Origin: an uncultured Rhodospirillaceae bacterium
GTDB taxonomy: Bacteria > Pseudomonadota > Alphaproteobacteria > UBA8366
DNA: 54,655 nucleotides
Reading direction: 5' to 3'
Assembly (NCBI GenBank): GCA_913043025.1
Contig: CAJWLM010000017.1
Coordinates: forward strand, 1-54,655
A program made the position numbers and the translations under genes. The notes beneath the pieces are model-generated. The model had not been told where the DNA came from, did not search any database, and worked only from the letters and a program-made list of their open reading frames with translations. Position 1 is the stretch's first letter. Each line of letters begins with the position of its first letter. This document shows, one piece after another, positions 50,317 to 54,655 of the stretch.

Positions 50317-50354
50317 GGTTTCTTGCTAAATTAATGCAAGAAGGAAAATTAAAT

Positions 50355-50588
50355 ATGAGCGATAAAAAATTAGATGACTTTCTAGCAGATCGTACCGCCT
50401 CTGCTATGAAGCAAATAGAAGAAAATATCTTTAAAGAGGTAAGAGAAGGCGTCTGCGAGTACTTTGGCACAGACAGCATCAGTAAGCTCAAAGAGGATCA
50501 GATTAAACAAATCAAGGAAGCCCAAGAGGCTCGTGATAAGGGTTTTTTGAAACTCGGATATAACCTGGTGCTTAAGCAGTTACGCTAA
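50355..50588 (+). CDS. small helical hypothetical protein
   Basis: From the ATG at 50355 (after GAAGGAAAAT) the product has 77 residues, nearly all predicted helical: [20 protein letters not shown], then [20 protein letters not shown]. No signal or membrane segment. It ends two bases before the DUF2256 gene, so the two are probably cotranscribed. The family is not recognised. Confidence 0.6.
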
Positions 50589-50590
50589 AT

Positions 50591-50731
50591 ATGCGTAAAA
50601 AATCCGAGCTACCAACCAAAATTTGTAAAACGTGCGGGAAGCCGTTTACGTGGCGTAAAAAGTGGGCGAAGGAATGGGATAATGTGCTTTATTGCTCGGA
50701 GCGGTGTCGACGCAATAAGCATATAGGGTAG
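50591..50731 (+). CDS. DUF2256 family Cys4 zinc-ribbon-like protein
   Basis: A 46-residue protein. The motif [20 protein letters not shown], followed by [11 protein letters not shown], is the DUF2256 pattern: two CxxC-like pairs (C-x2-C and C-x3-C) around a WRKKW core, probably binding one zinc ion. Members often sit beside DASH cryptochrome or photolyase-related genes; none is here. It starts two bases after the preceding small gene. Confidence 0.85.
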
Positions 50732-50756
50732 GTGATGGTCGCACTCTTGGAAATTC

Positions 50757-51102: not shown

Positions 51103-52584
51103 ATGGCTTTTAAGATTCCAGATTTGTTTCCTTCGCTTAGCAATTCGGGCTCACCTTTTGATGATGGAACAGGTGAGTTCCTCCCAATTGATGTCGAAGT
51201 CGCCAAGAAACACTTAAGATTGGCGGAGCTTGCCCATGAAAATGGAGAAAAATCTCAGCCATCGGCCACTAGATCTACAAAAGACGCTATGGCAAAGGCA
51301 ATTGATACCCATATCGCAGATCTCGTCAGGATGGCAAAAGATAAATTCCAGAACAGGCTCAATGCTATTGATGAGTTGAGCAAGGCCCACTCCAGTTCCT
51401 TACAATATATTGCTGAAATTTATGAAAATGGGCGGGCGGAGCTTAAAGCCACTGCGCGCAAGCATTACGGTTCTTTGTTTACGGCTAAACGCGATTGGGT
51501 GCTCGGCGAAGATGAAATTACTTCTTTCCGAAAAAAGCATGGTCGTATTGGTCCAGCTCGATACCCTGTAGACAAAACAAAAATATTCGGTTTGATATTT
51601 TTAATAGCGATTGTGGAGATTATGACGAACGCCTACGCTTTGGGAGAAGCTCATCCGAGTGGTCCTATTGGCGTTGTTATGGAAATTTTTATGTTTGGCA
51701 TAGCTAACGTCGGGGTTGCATTTCTTCTGGGCTGTTACGTATGGCGTTATTTTTTTCACATTAGTTTCGTTCAGAAAATGTTCGCTACATTGTTGGCGAT
51801 TCCGATGACCGCCTTTATTTTGTTTTTAAATTTTTTCCTTGCGCATTATCGAGATGCTATTTCAAAGCTTGCTGACAATGACCTTTCGGCTCTCCAGATG
51901 ATGACGCTGATGCAAAAATTAGGCGGACAAGCGAGAGATACACTCGTCCACAATCCTTTTGTCATGGATGATTTTAAATCTTACCTTTTACTATTCGTTG
52001 GCGTGCTAGCATCAACCTTTGCGACTAAAAAAAGTTTTGAGTTGGATGATCCATATCCCGGCTATGGTAAAATTAGCAGAGAGCAGAATGACTTGGCATT
52101 TAACTTTAATAATGACCAGACCTTAGCCTTGAACGAAATGAATAACTTGGTTGACGATTTTTCAGGTCAAATAAATACCCAGGTCAGCATCATAAAAGCC
52201 GGCGACGAAAGGGTAAGTCGACGCGAAAATGACAAGAAACAATTGCAGGACAAGTATAACAATTGGCTTGCTGTCACTGAATCGGTTGGTGAGGCTCTTT
52301 ATGCTTTTTATAGAGAAGAAAATATGAAAGCGCGTAAAGACCAAAAGGAACCAAAATGTTTCATAACTACGAATTTCAGCTTGAGGGGGGCAAACGTAAA
52401 GCTCCCTGTAACCCGTCGGAGAAGAACCGATCACAGTAAGCTAGAAAGAACCGCCAGGAAGTATGTGGATGATTTAAACTCGACTTCAGATGAATTTCAA
52501 AAACATTTTAAAGATATCGAAAATATGTCAGAGGATAAAGTTCTCGCAGCGAAATTCAAGGAACCAACGGTCTTCAGGGATTAA
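51103..52584 (+). CDS. four-helix membrane protein with coiled-coil flanks, first gene of the right-end cluster
   Basis: I do not recognise this 493-residue protein. Residues 30-130 are charged and helical. Four transmembrane segments follow at about 161-180 (IFGLIFLIAIVEIMTNAYAL), 191-217, 225-248 and 291-309. After the motif DDPYPGYGK (about 315) comes a long charged helical tail (340-485). Two central helices pack a 40-residue loop with QMMTLMQKLG. The topology would place both long helical ends in the cytoplasm. It begins the right-edge group and its stop lies two bases before the next ATG. Confidence 0.7.
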   Translation: MAFKIPDLFPSLSNSGSPFDDGTGEFLPIDVEVAKKHLRLAELAHENGEKSQPSATRSTKDAMAKAIDTHIADLVRMAKDKFQNRLNAIDELSKAHSSSLQYIAEIYENGRAELKATARKHYGSLFTAKRDWVLGEDEITSFRKKHGRIGPARYPVDKTKIFGLIFLIAIVEIMTNAYALGEAHPSGPIGVVMEIFMFGIANVGVAFLLGCYVWRYFFHISFVQKMFATLLAIPMTAFILFLNFFLAHYRDAISKLADNDLSALQMMTLMQKLGGQARDTLVHNPFVMDDFKSYLLLFVGVLASTFATKKSFELDDPYPGYGKISREQNDLAFNFNNDQTLALNEMNNLVDDFSGQINTQVSIIKAGDERVSRRENDKKQLQDKYNNWLAVTESVGEALYAFYREENMKARKDQKEPKCFITTNFSLRGANVKLPVTRRRRTDHSKLERTARKYVDDLNSTSDEFQKHFKDIENMSEDKVLAAKFKEPTVFRD

Positions 52585-52586
52585 GA

Positions 52587-53426
52587 ATGTCAAAAAGACG
52601 CACCTCCGTTCAACAGACATCAAATGCGAAAAGCGGAAGTTCGATCGGAAGATATTTTTATTTTGTTATTGGCGGCATAATTTTGGTAGCTGTTGTTAGT
52701 TATATAATAATCCAGCCTCCACCCACTGACCCGAAAACATTTTGTGCCAGAGACACGACAAACATAGGCATGACGGCACTTTTGATTGATGTGAGCGACA
52801 AGCTCAGTAATAGCCAAGTGGCTAGACTTCAAAATGAGTTACAACATATCAGCAGTATTTCTGAAAAACAGTCAGCTTCTTTTCTTGAAAAAGGAGAAAA
52901 GCTTTTGGTTTACTTCGTAGAACCCGAGGGCCAAGTGCCAAGCTTAGTCTTTTCGATGTGTCATCCCGGCGATACCGCCAGCCGAAGTGTTGCTGACGGG
53001 CTCTCGGAAGGAGCAATATTTGCGCGAAAAAAATGGCAAAAGTTTACTAACGATACAATAGCCACTATTGAAAATAAGATCGATGGCTCTTCGGCAATGT
53101 CGACGTCACCATTAATCGAAGTAATTCAATTTATTCGCGCCCAGAACTTTCCGCCGGCACGTTTAATGAACGAGGCTATAAAGCACAGGCTGATCATCTG
53201 GTCAGATCTTCTCCAAAATAGCAATGCGGGCGATCATTTTTCTAAGCTTGATGACTATAAGGAAGTGCTTAGGCGAAATCCTCTGGAAATGAGCGGTATA
53301 GAGGTATCTATCTTTCAAATAATTTCGGAAAAATATTTCAAATATCAAACAAATGAACATACTGCCTGGTGGCGTAAAATATTCGCCAAAGCTGGCGCCA
53401 CCATGCGTATGTGGGAAAAAATTTGA
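52587..53426 (+). CDS. membrane-anchored protein with von Willebrand-like first strand
   Basis: A 279-residue protein with one membrane helix at about 23-42 (YFYFVIGGIILVAVVSYI) after a basic, Ser-rich N terminus. The following domain opens GMTALLIDVSDKLSNSQ: a hydrophobic strand ending in Asp68-x-Ser70, as in MIDAS motifs of von Willebrand A domains, but the second Ser is Lys/Asp, so metal binding is doubtful. Later SGIEVSIFQI and RLIIWSDLLQ are further strands typical of that fold. The domain would sit in the periplasm. Its stop lies one base before the next gene's ATG. Confidence 0.6.
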   Translation: MSKRRTSVQQTSNAKSGSSIGRYFYFVIGGIILVAVVSYIIIQPPPTDPKTFCARDTTNIGMTALLIDVSDKLSNSQVARLQNELQHISSISEKQSASFLEKGEKLLVYFVEPEGQVPSLVFSMCHPGDTASRSVADGLSEGAIFARKKWQKFTNDTIATIENKIDGSSAMSTSPLIEVIQFIRAQNFPPARLMNEAIKHRLIIWSDLLQNSNAGDHFSKLDDYKEVLRRNPLEMSGIEVSIFQIISEKYFKYQTNEHTAWWRKIFAKAGATMRMWEKI

Positions 53427-53427
53427 T

Positions 53428-54627
53428 ATGAAAGCTCCTTTTCGGCGACGCTTGGATGACAGTCATGATAAAACAGCGTTTTTTGTCGCTTTTTTGGGTG
53501 GCTTTATCGGGATCTTGTTTTTTCGACTCGTGGGCGGCGGGCAAAGAGGGATCACAGGTTGGGACTGGGCGGCCATTGCTTTCGCAATTGGCGTACTTAT
53601 CCTGTATGGATTTTATATTTACTTTACAAAAAACAGAAGTGGTATTTCGGTAGATAGAGCGTCAGATAACATCTATTACCTGGGCTTATTATTCACTTTA
53701 TTGTCTTTAGCCTATTCTTTGGTCTTATTGTCAGGAGGTATTGATGCTGACAAAACTAGCGGCAATGCCGTATTAGTGCTTTCACTTTTGCCTGACTTTG
53801 GCCTTGCTCTTTTCTCAACTATCACAGGCATATTTGGACGGATCATTTTGCAACAACTTCGCAATGATCCGATGGACGTTGAAACAGAGGCTCGTGAAGA
53901 ACTTGGTCTTGCTATTCGGCAATTGAGAGAAACAATTGGACAAGTGGTTACAAATTTAAATGGTCTTTCGGATCAGACCAGCTTAACGTTATCAGAATTG
54001 AATCAGACTGTGTCCCAAACACTTGAACGGTCTGCCAATCAAAACACATCGGTGATACGGTCTGTTGCCGACGAAGTGGGCGTGCTCAGCACTCAATTAC
54101 AAGAGCAGGTTACGATTGTAACTAACTTTACGACCGCATCTACCAACCAATTCAGTGAGATAGGCAGTAGTTTGAGAATGCAGTTTGAACACTTTGGTCA
54201 GATACCAGAAAGTCTGGGGACACAATTTAGCGAACTCAGTGAAAAATTGGGGGGCGCTATAGAGCAAATTGAGGTTGCTGCGAGCCATCAGACAAACCTT
54301 TCTAGCGAATTGTTAAATTCTGTTGAGGCGCTAAAGACGGCATTTTCTGGGGGTGGTCTTTCGAGAATTTCCGATATTATTAACGATCTGGAAAAAAGCT
54401 TTTTGGAGGTCGATAAAAGAATGACTGACAAAAAAAATCAGCTTTCATCTACTCTAGACGGTATGAGCGCTCAGATTGAACAACTTGAAGAATCGTCCTC
54501 ATCATTAGCTAGCTACGAAAAAAAGATTGAGGCCTCAGCAACATCTGTGGATGAGGCAAATAATGAATACCTCGAAGAACTCAGCAAAGCAGCTGAGACC
54601 TTAAGGAAAAAAACTGATCGCACGTGA
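53428..54627 (+). CDS. MotA/ExbB-like channel protein with long coiled-coil tail (ZorA-like layout)
   Basis: From the ATG at 53428 the protein has 399 residues. Four membrane helices lie at about 15-35, 46-66, 82-102 and 114-141. The last two, YYLGLLFTLLSLAYS and PDFGLALFSTITGIFGRIIL, match the MotA/TolQ/ExbB pattern of a G-L-x-x-T helix followed by one with a conserved Ser/Thr-Ile-Gly. From 150 to the end is a long heptad-rich tail, as in ZorA of Zorya anti-phage systems and other ion-driven motors. A frame open further upstream (53353) overlaps the preceding gene and is less likely. The stop overlaps the next ATG (TGATG). Confidence 0.7.
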   Translation: MKAPFRRRLDDSHDKTAFFVAFLGGFIGILFFRLVGGGQRGITGWDWAAIAFAIGVLILYGFYIYFTKNRSGISVDRASDNIYYLGLLFTLLSLAYSLVLLSGGIDADKTSGNAVLVLSLLPDFGLALFSTITGIFGRIILQQLRNDPMDVETEAREELGLAIRQLRETIGQVVTNLNGLSDQTSLTLSELNQTVSQTLERSANQNTSVIRSVADEVGVLSTQLQEQVTIVTNFTTASTNQFSEIGSSLRMQFEHFGQIPESLGTQFSELSEKLGGAIEQIEVAASHQTNLSSELLNSVEALKTAFSGGGLSRISDIINDLEKSFLEVDKRMTDKKNQLSSTLDGMSAQIEQLEESSSSLASYEKKIEASATSVDEANNEYLEELSKAAETLRKKTDRT

Positions 54628-54655
54628 TGTCCCAGTCTTTTGATAATTTTGATAA
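54627..54655 (+). CDS. start of a fourth clustered gene, cut by the window edge
   Basis: An ATG overlapping the stop of the MotA-like gene (TGATG) reads MSQSFDNFD and runs off the window. The overlap implies translational coupling. By analogy with MotA-like/OmpA-like pairs it could encode the peptidoglycan-binding partner of the channel, but only nine residues are visible. Confidence 0.45.

What the first reader, a model, noticed from the sequence alone, without database searches (positions are those of the whole stretch)
51103..54655. Four-gene membrane motor-like cluster with a ZorA-like subunit and no recognisable known partners
Four plus-strand genes are packed with gaps of 2, 1 and -1 bases. 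They encode a four-helix membrane protein with helical tails, a single-helix protein whose outer domain starts like a von Willebrand A fold, a MotA/ExbB-like four-helix protein with a ~250-residue coiled-coil tail, and a fourth gene beginning MSQSFDNFD that is cut. MotA-like proteins with long cytoplasmic coils are the hallmark of Zorya ZorA, but the first two genes do not match zorB, zorC or zorD. This could be an undescribed ion-driven defence or envelope machine. Gene packing and topology are seen; function is inference.
Basis: partly seen in the sequence, partly recalled or inferred. Interest (0 to 1): 0.75.

Follow-up and report, generated by a model that had tools for sequence, protein, structure and literature searches.

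The report
Membrane motor linked to periplasmic nuclease
At the end of this bacterial contig begins a four-gene membrane machine that resembles the ion-driven motor of the Zorya phage-defence system, and in many relatives its cell-wall-binding part is fused to, or encoded near, a DNA-cutting enzyme that should work outside the inner membrane, so it may destroy foreign DNA before it enters the cell.

Summary
In detail: three complete genes and 29 bases of a fourth (A 51103-52584, B 52587-53426, C 53428-54627, D 54627-contig end), with gaps of 2, 1 and -1. A: four TM helices and two long helical arms; B: one TM helix and a von Willebrand A fold; C: four TM helices and a coiled-coil tail. In 106 fetched loci (many redundant) A-B-C-D keeps this order. 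D there has one TM helix, mostly an OmpA/ZorB-like outer domain, and an invariant Glu where ZorB has Asp. New here: D carries a C-terminal SNase domain in four loci and an HNH domain in a fifth, and an SNase is fused or within 2 kb in 25 of 35 sequence clusters. In 15 operon genomes, 7 SNases lie within 2 kb or in D; 0.07 expected. Two IMG/VR contigs carry the operon 1.2 and 4.5 kb from a serine integrase. Best reading: an ion-driven, wall-anchored machine with a periplasmic nuclease against incoming DNA, like Zorya in plan but not shown to be Zorya. Function is inferred; the window copy's own D is missing and no SNase lies in the window.

The parts
51103..52584 (+). Gene A: four-TM protein with two long helices (residues 62-146 and 321-410), presumably cytoplasmic
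   Evidence: ORF; model pLDDT 79.6; relatives at 14-24% identity in A-B-C-D or A-B operons
52587..53426 (+). Gene B: one TM helix (19-42) and a von Willebrand A-fold domain, presumably periplasmic, with MIDAS-like residues (D68, D71, S174, S206-D207)
   Evidence: model and fold search
53428..54627 (+). Gene C: MotA/ZorA-like four-TM channel subunit with coiled-coil tail (about 250 residues)
   Evidence: DN.YY.G...T in TM3 and T in TM4 invariant in 23 sequences; weak ZorA profile hits in relatives
54627..54655 (+). Gene D, first 29 bases only (MSQSFDNFD), cut by the contig end; in relatives the one-TM, mostly OmpA/ZorB-like partner, sometimes fused to a nuclease
   Evidence: relatives

Best explanation
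A-B-C-D encodes an inner-membrane, ion-driven motor. C (five copies, by analogy) surrounds the helices of two D subunits; the Glu in the helix of D and the Thr residues of C TM3/TM4 form the ion path; the outer domain of D holds the peptidoglycan. B presents a vWA domain in the periplasm and A adds a helical stalk; they sense, gate or couple the motor. A periplasmic nuclease (SNase, in one case HNH), fused to the tip of D or secreted from a neighbouring gene, cuts foreign double-stranded DNA as it crosses the periplasm from a phage or a donor cell. Shown here: the gene set, order, domains, nuclease fusions and adjacency in relatives, and occurrence on plasmids and near integrases. Inferred: 5:2 assembly, ion flow, wall binding, periplasmic location of the nuclease (topology and hydrophobic N-termini), activation by envelope breach, and defence as the purpose.
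For: Fixed operon: 83 of 83 loci, plus 23 other loci with all four genes (106, many redundant). D: Pfam OmpA at E<=0.1 in 6 of 7 rows; ZorB profiles at E<=0.001 in 5 of 9 D proteins scanned, up to 1.7e-33 (L038), over the outer domain and not the helix. C: ZorA profile alignments confined to the TM region at 1.2e-4 and 5.8e-4, wider ones to 3.2e-8. Invariant GLTxAE-type motif in D: 105 of 106, the exception a fragment. Nuclease: SNase domain C-terminal to the OmpA region in D of L031, L038, L043, L059, and GmrSD_C HNH in L032, the last 34-53% identical to plasmid HNH endonucleases in 24 of the 30 rows shown. SNase within 2 kb or fused in 7 of 15 operon genomes against 0.07 expected and in 25 of 35 clusters; 0 of 7 A-B-only loci. 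SNase-bearing loci are spread over the tree, the fusions in two separate branches. Two of three IMG/VR loci have the operon 1.2 and 4.5 kb from a serine integrase, with CI- or UmuD-like genes. Patchy: A in 16 of 387 class genomes; no match in the two other genomes of the window's genus, of 84% and 100% completeness.
Against: No experiment. The window copy lacks a readable D and the SNase profile finds nothing in the window; the D of G007, in the same order, has no Pfam domain. Ten of 35 clusters show no SNase within 2 kb (one of them has the HNH fusion; other nuclease families were not screened), and in the largest (48 loci) only three loci, two of them the same plasmid, have one. By locus it is 45 of 106 within 2 kb and 29 within 300 bases. 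C shows no profile match to solved MotA/ExbB/ZorA chains nor to E. coli MotA/ExbB. ZorB profiles miss 4 of 9 D proteins scanned. Flanking genes gave few defence hits: 126 ORFs, at most 4 members per family among the 25 of 112 families shown, no background run. Seven of 106 D proteins lack the GHTD-like OmpA motif.
Confidence: 0.55

Rival explanations
1. Envelope-maintenance or wall-remodelling machine (Tol-Pal-like); the SNase is a passenger or clears extracellular DNA.
For: OmpA, vWA and TM proteins are common in envelope machines (recalled); ten of 35 clusters have no SNase nearby; two Paracoccus loci lie beside metabolic or transport genes.
Against: Nuclease domains are fused to D in five loci with two different folds; patchy distribution; two integrase-bearing contigs carry it.
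Confidence: 0.18
2. DNA-scavenging or uptake machine: the motor and periplasmic nuclease process external DNA as nutrient or for uptake.
For: SNase beside or in the operon; an annotated ComEC-like gene lies about 6 kb away in one plasmid locus (L007); ABC-ATPase genes lie near eight of 31 loci, but of several kinds, including ABC-F-like ones.
Against: Among the 40 neighbour families shown no receptor or competence gene recurs; occurrence near integrases.
Confidence: 0.1
3. A divergent member of Zorya proper, with the usual cytoplasmic DNA effector encoded elsewhere and A/B as replaced subunits.
For: ZorB-like D in several relatives and weakly ZorA-like C with coiled tail.
Against: Window A and B match no PADLOC Zorya model at E<=1; Glu replaces the critical Asp; the linked nuclease is on the outer side of D.
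Confidence: 0.1
4. A-B is an independent two-gene system (it occurs alone) that only shares operons with a motor; the window belongs nearer to that type.
For: Seven A-B loci in six genomes with no C profile hit in the genome; the window branches just outside the other four-gene loci on a tree whose support I did not inspect.
Against: The window has C and the start of D in the same packed operon; whenever C was the search key, A and B were present (83 of 83).
Confidence: 0.07

Closest known systems
Zorya anti-phage systems, ZorA-ZorB core (types I-III)
   Same: Four-TM MotA-like subunit with long cytoplasmic coil, followed by a one-TM subunit with a peptidoglycan-binding OmpA-like domain (PADLOC hits in relatives; PMC11890865, section 6 part 1 and Discussion read).
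   Different: Two extra membrane partners (stalk protein A, vWA protein B); Glu for Asp in D; nuclease fused on the outer side of D or encoded nearby with a hydrophobic N-terminus, where that paper has ZorE and ZorCD recruited through the ZorA tail inside the cell.
MotAB / TolQR / ExbBD 5:2 ion-driven motors
   Same: Topology and polar TM3/TM4 positions of C; acidic residue in the D helix (correspondence recalled, not computed).
   Different: No detectable sequence match of C to solved chains or to E. coli MotA/ExbB; no flagellar, Tol-Pal or Ton genes in the six annotated neighbourhoods.
SNase thermonucleases and DUF1524/HNH plasmid endonucleases
   Same: Domain identity and motifs.
   Different: Here joined to, or encoded near, a motor subunit.

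Membership tests
Zorya | ZorA: MotA-like four-TM protein with long cytoplasmic tail | tested here: inconclusive
   Topology and tail present; profile hits weak, many coil-driven; TM-only alignments at 1.2e-4 and 5.8e-4 in two relatives
Zorya | ZorB: one TM plus peptidoglycan-binding OmpA-like domain | tested here: inconclusive
   Met in many relatives: ZorB profiles in 5 of 9 D scanned (to 1.7e-33), Pfam OmpA at E<=0.1 in 6 of 7 rows; not in others (4 of 9); window D is cut
Zorya | critical Asp in the ZorB helix (D24/D21, PMC11890865) | tested here: not met
   In relatives: Glu in 105 of 106 D proteins, the other a fragment without the helix; window D unreadable
Zorya | effector genes ZorC+ZorD, ZorE, or ZorF+ZorG | tested here: inconclusive
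   Window A and B: no PADLOC Zorya hit at E<=1. Flanking ORFs: only 25 of 112 matched families were shown, none a Zorya effector, so absence nearby is not proven
Zorya | 5:2 assembly and ion flow | not testable with these tools
   needs purification or cryo-EM
von Willebrand A fold (gene B) | vWA Rossmann-like fold | tested here: met
   Z 12.2 to 4fx5 over 157 residues, rmsd 2.9; no Pfam vWA hit
von Willebrand A fold (gene B) | DxSxS metal site | tested here: inconclusive
   D-x-S/T-D variant, with conserved S174 and S206-D207
SNase (neighbour and D-fused domains) | PF00565 above cut-off and active-site motifs | tested here: met
   the six SNase-bearing proteins put to Pfam all pass the cut-off; DGDT- and RxxGxxxPE-like motifs in most of 48 profile hits

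The most novel reading that the evidence does not exclude
A class of ion-driven, wall-anchored machines whose stator carries or directs a nuclease in the periplasm, so that invading DNA is cut between the membranes before it reaches the cytoplasm: a periplasmic counterpart of Zorya with swappable nuclease heads and a vWA sensor.
Probability: 0.5. Interest if true: 0.9.

Novelty: new variant of a known kind. Interest (0 to 1): 0.8.

Why it matters
In the published Zorya model the motor recruits nucleases inside the cell (PMC11890865, Discussion). A motor whose peptidoglycan-binding subunit ends in a nuclease domain would put the cut in the periplasm and would make testable how rotation or wall contact controls an effector: here motor subunit and effector can be one polypeptide. 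It occurs in many rhizobia and other Alphaproteobacteria, on plasmids and large chromosome-sized contigs, and near phage-type integrases in two IMG/VR contigs. I found no description of it in seven full-text searches of the open-licence library, which lacks most subscription journals and bioRxiv-only work.

Tried and rejected
The window-protein scans of Pfam, NCBIfam and PADLOC gave only coiled-coil or chance hits. Scans of genome contigs and viral contigs with A alone found nothing; phage records: no match to A. C against solved structures and against E. coli MotA/ExbB: nothing meaningful, so the MotA-like claim rests on topology, operon partner and weak ZorA hits. D against solved structures: none at E<=0.01; A and B nothing usable. 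Fold search of A: no match at E<=0.001. An SNase at C19:980-1978 of the window's genome looked like the lost end of D but is a separate ORF with its own hydrophobic N-terminus. The L033 SNase hit is a 78-aa fragment and was dropped from the counts. Defence-gene enrichment of flanks: not shown. My regular expression for the C threonines was off by one position and its zero count is void; I use the invariants instead. The script found no locus files and gave nothing.

Dropped or chosen rows: duplicate loci L029 and L056 left out and of the alignments; L043 (A cut) also left out; structure alignments used 33 (B) and 38 (A) of the 83 loci plus the window; 16 of 142 picked flanking ORFs left out to stay under the residue limit; five of the D proteins put to Pfam were chosen because they are long.
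Full report
What is there. The last 3.55 kb of the window, which is also the end of contig C17, holds three complete plus-strand genes and the first 29 bases of a fourth, with gaps of 2, 1 and -1 bases. No continuation of the fourth gene was found. The window proteins match no Pfam, NCBIfam or PADLOC family beyond coiled-coil or chance hits.

The organism. The same-class sample includes genomes whose contigs equal named records in length: Tistrella mobilis pTM3 (1,126,962 bases) and a Rhizobium sp. contig of 17,323 bases. So the window lies in Alphaproteobacteria; the species is not known to me.

The conserved operon. tblastn of A found 24 plasmid records. The seven neighbourhoods I opened first (two of them without annotation, read as ORFs) all have A-B-C-D; D is annotated as OmpA family protein in three of the five annotated ones. 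A profile of A matched 16 of 387 genomes of the class at E<=1e-10, in 12 of 264 genera, the window's own genome included, and 13 of 397 genomes of the phylum sample at E<=1e-5, all in the same class; the full make-up of that sample is not shown. In the order, 2 of 43 genomes matched the A protein, the window's own and G007. A scan with the C core gave 273 confirmed stretches in the genome collection, of which the best 80 were kept (nearly all rhizobia and their kin), and 3 in viral contigs. All 83 fetched loci have hits to A, B, C and D in order on one strand, though a few are cut or in pieces. In all, 106 loci with hits to all four were in hand; many are near-identical, so I also count 35 clusters made at 70% identity of A (L043, whose A is cut, was added as its own cluster).

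C and D as a motor. Thr in TM3 and Thr in TM4 of C are invariant, and the Ser before the latter is over 90% conserved, in 23 aligned sequences; that these correspond to the polar ring of ExbB/MotA is recalled, not computed. ZorA profiles match C of some relatives, twice in the TM region alone at 1.2e-4 and 5.8e-4. D has one TM helix with an invariant Glu (105 of 106) where ZorB has its critical Asp (PMC11890865, section 6 part 1 read), and an outer domain that Pfam calls OmpA at E<=0.1 in 6 of 7 rows. ZorB profiles match that outer domain, not the helix, in 5 of 9 D proteins scanned, at up to 1.7e-33. Seven of 106 D proteins lack the GHTD-like motif, and D of G007, in the window's order, has no Pfam domain. 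C against solved structures and against E. coli MotA/ExbB gave nothing.

A and B. B folds as a vWA domain after one TM helix (pLDDT 82.9, Z 12.2 to 4fx5), with a MIDAS-like set of conserved residues. A is modelled with four TM helices and two helices of 85-90 residues, with no fold match. Seven loci in six genomes have A-B without C-D, and the C profile is absent from those genomes, so A-B is a separable module.

The nuclease link. Clustering of flanking ORFs over 31 loci (A-B-only loci and the window included) gave a recurrent SNase in eight; the other family as frequent was the ABC-ATPase superfamily, and the rest of the 40 families shown were in five loci or fewer. A separate whole-genome search with PF00565 showed SNase hits inside D genes, confirmed by Pfam: SNase C-terminal to the OmpA region in L031, L038, L043 and L059, and an HNH (GmrSD_C) domain in L032 (three of these sequences). 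By the SNase profile these are 4 of 106 D genes (the L135 overlap flagged there is an upstream SNase whose frame overlaps the extended frame of A). In the 15 operon genomes other than the window's, which were found through A and not through SNase, 7 have an SNase within 2 kb or in D, against 0.066 expected from their 38 SNases in 81 Mb (Poisson 1e-12; 1e-10 with the same-genus pair counted once). Over clusters, 25 of 35 have it within 2 kb or fused in at least one member, and 23 within 300 bases or fused; over the 83 searched loci 32 and 18, over all 106 loci 45 and 29. The largest cluster (48 loci) mostly lacks it. Stand-alone SNases lie upstream or downstream, on either strand, and nearly all have a hydrophobic N-terminal stretch. 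On a tree of A+B+C the SNase loci are spread over the four-gene group and the SNase fusions fall in two separate branches, with the HNH fusion sister to an SNase fusion (FastTree, midpoint root, support values not inspected). None of the seven A-B-only loci has an SNase hit in the fetched 20 kb.

Mobility. Two of the three IMG/VR loci (L144, L145) carry the operon with an SNase gene, 1.2 and 4.5 kb from a large serine integrase, with CI- or UmuD-like genes and, in L144, a Sak4-like annealing protein; in the third (L143) three flanking ORFs had no Pfam hit. Neither of the window's two genus-mates has a match to A, and in G042 similarity to the window's left flank stops at 50332, just after the dioxygenase gene, where other genes follow. 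The operon's GC, 41-42%, is within the range of the preceding 21 kb, 38.5-54%.

Mechanism. The N-terminal TM and outer OmpA domain of D place its C-terminal nuclease in the periplasm; the neighbouring SNases should be exported. I infer a wall-anchored ion-driven motor that positions or triggers a nuclease at the peptidoglycan, with B as an outer sensor or adaptor and A as an inner stalk. Zorya gives the precedent for motor, wall binding and nuclease recruitment (PMC11890865, Discussion read), there inside the cell. The defence purpose is the likeliest reading (0.55), because of swappable nuclease heads, patchy spread and occurrence on plasmids and near integrases; it is not proven.

Literature. 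Seven full-text searches listed no paper that, by title or abstract start, describes this operon; two of them listed nothing. Of PMC11890865 I read the outline, section 6 part 1 and the Discussion; of PMC12505986 passages only; other papers only as search listings.

Noticed in passing
L039, L040, L041, L042, L060, L061, L062: A-B pairs without C-D, in genomes where the C profile finds nothing; perhaps a two-gene stalk-plus-vWA system of its own.
   Followed up: partly
L154:6095-9831 (G007) with L044:238-1827: Four-gene relative in the window's order, split over two contigs; its D has a Glu in the TM stretch but an unrecognised outer domain, and is followed by a 277-aa ORF with a TM stretch.
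   Followed up: partly
L146:980-1978 (window genome, contig C19): Stand-alone SNase-like ORF with hydrophobic N-terminus and a long Lys-rich tail, near a contig start.
   Followed up: partly
L010:16610-17362 and L113:6658-7602: ORFs with similar basic N-termini and a TM stretch next to the operon; the L010 one reads like an SH3-type domain followed by a Cys-rich CPYNTDRGGRRCG end (by eye).
   Followed up: no
L136 and L111: D and B in L136, and B in L111, appear as two ORF pieces, so some copies look decayed or carry sequencing errors.
   Followed up: no
L143:6451-6891: ORF upstream of the operon in a viral contig with a GIY-YIG-like stretch by eye; Pfam finds no family.
   Followed up: partly
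window 50327-50739: Small ORFs just before the operon match a contig edge of G038 at 93%, although similarity to the flank in G042 stops just as they begin; the neighbourhood is variable.
   Followed up: no
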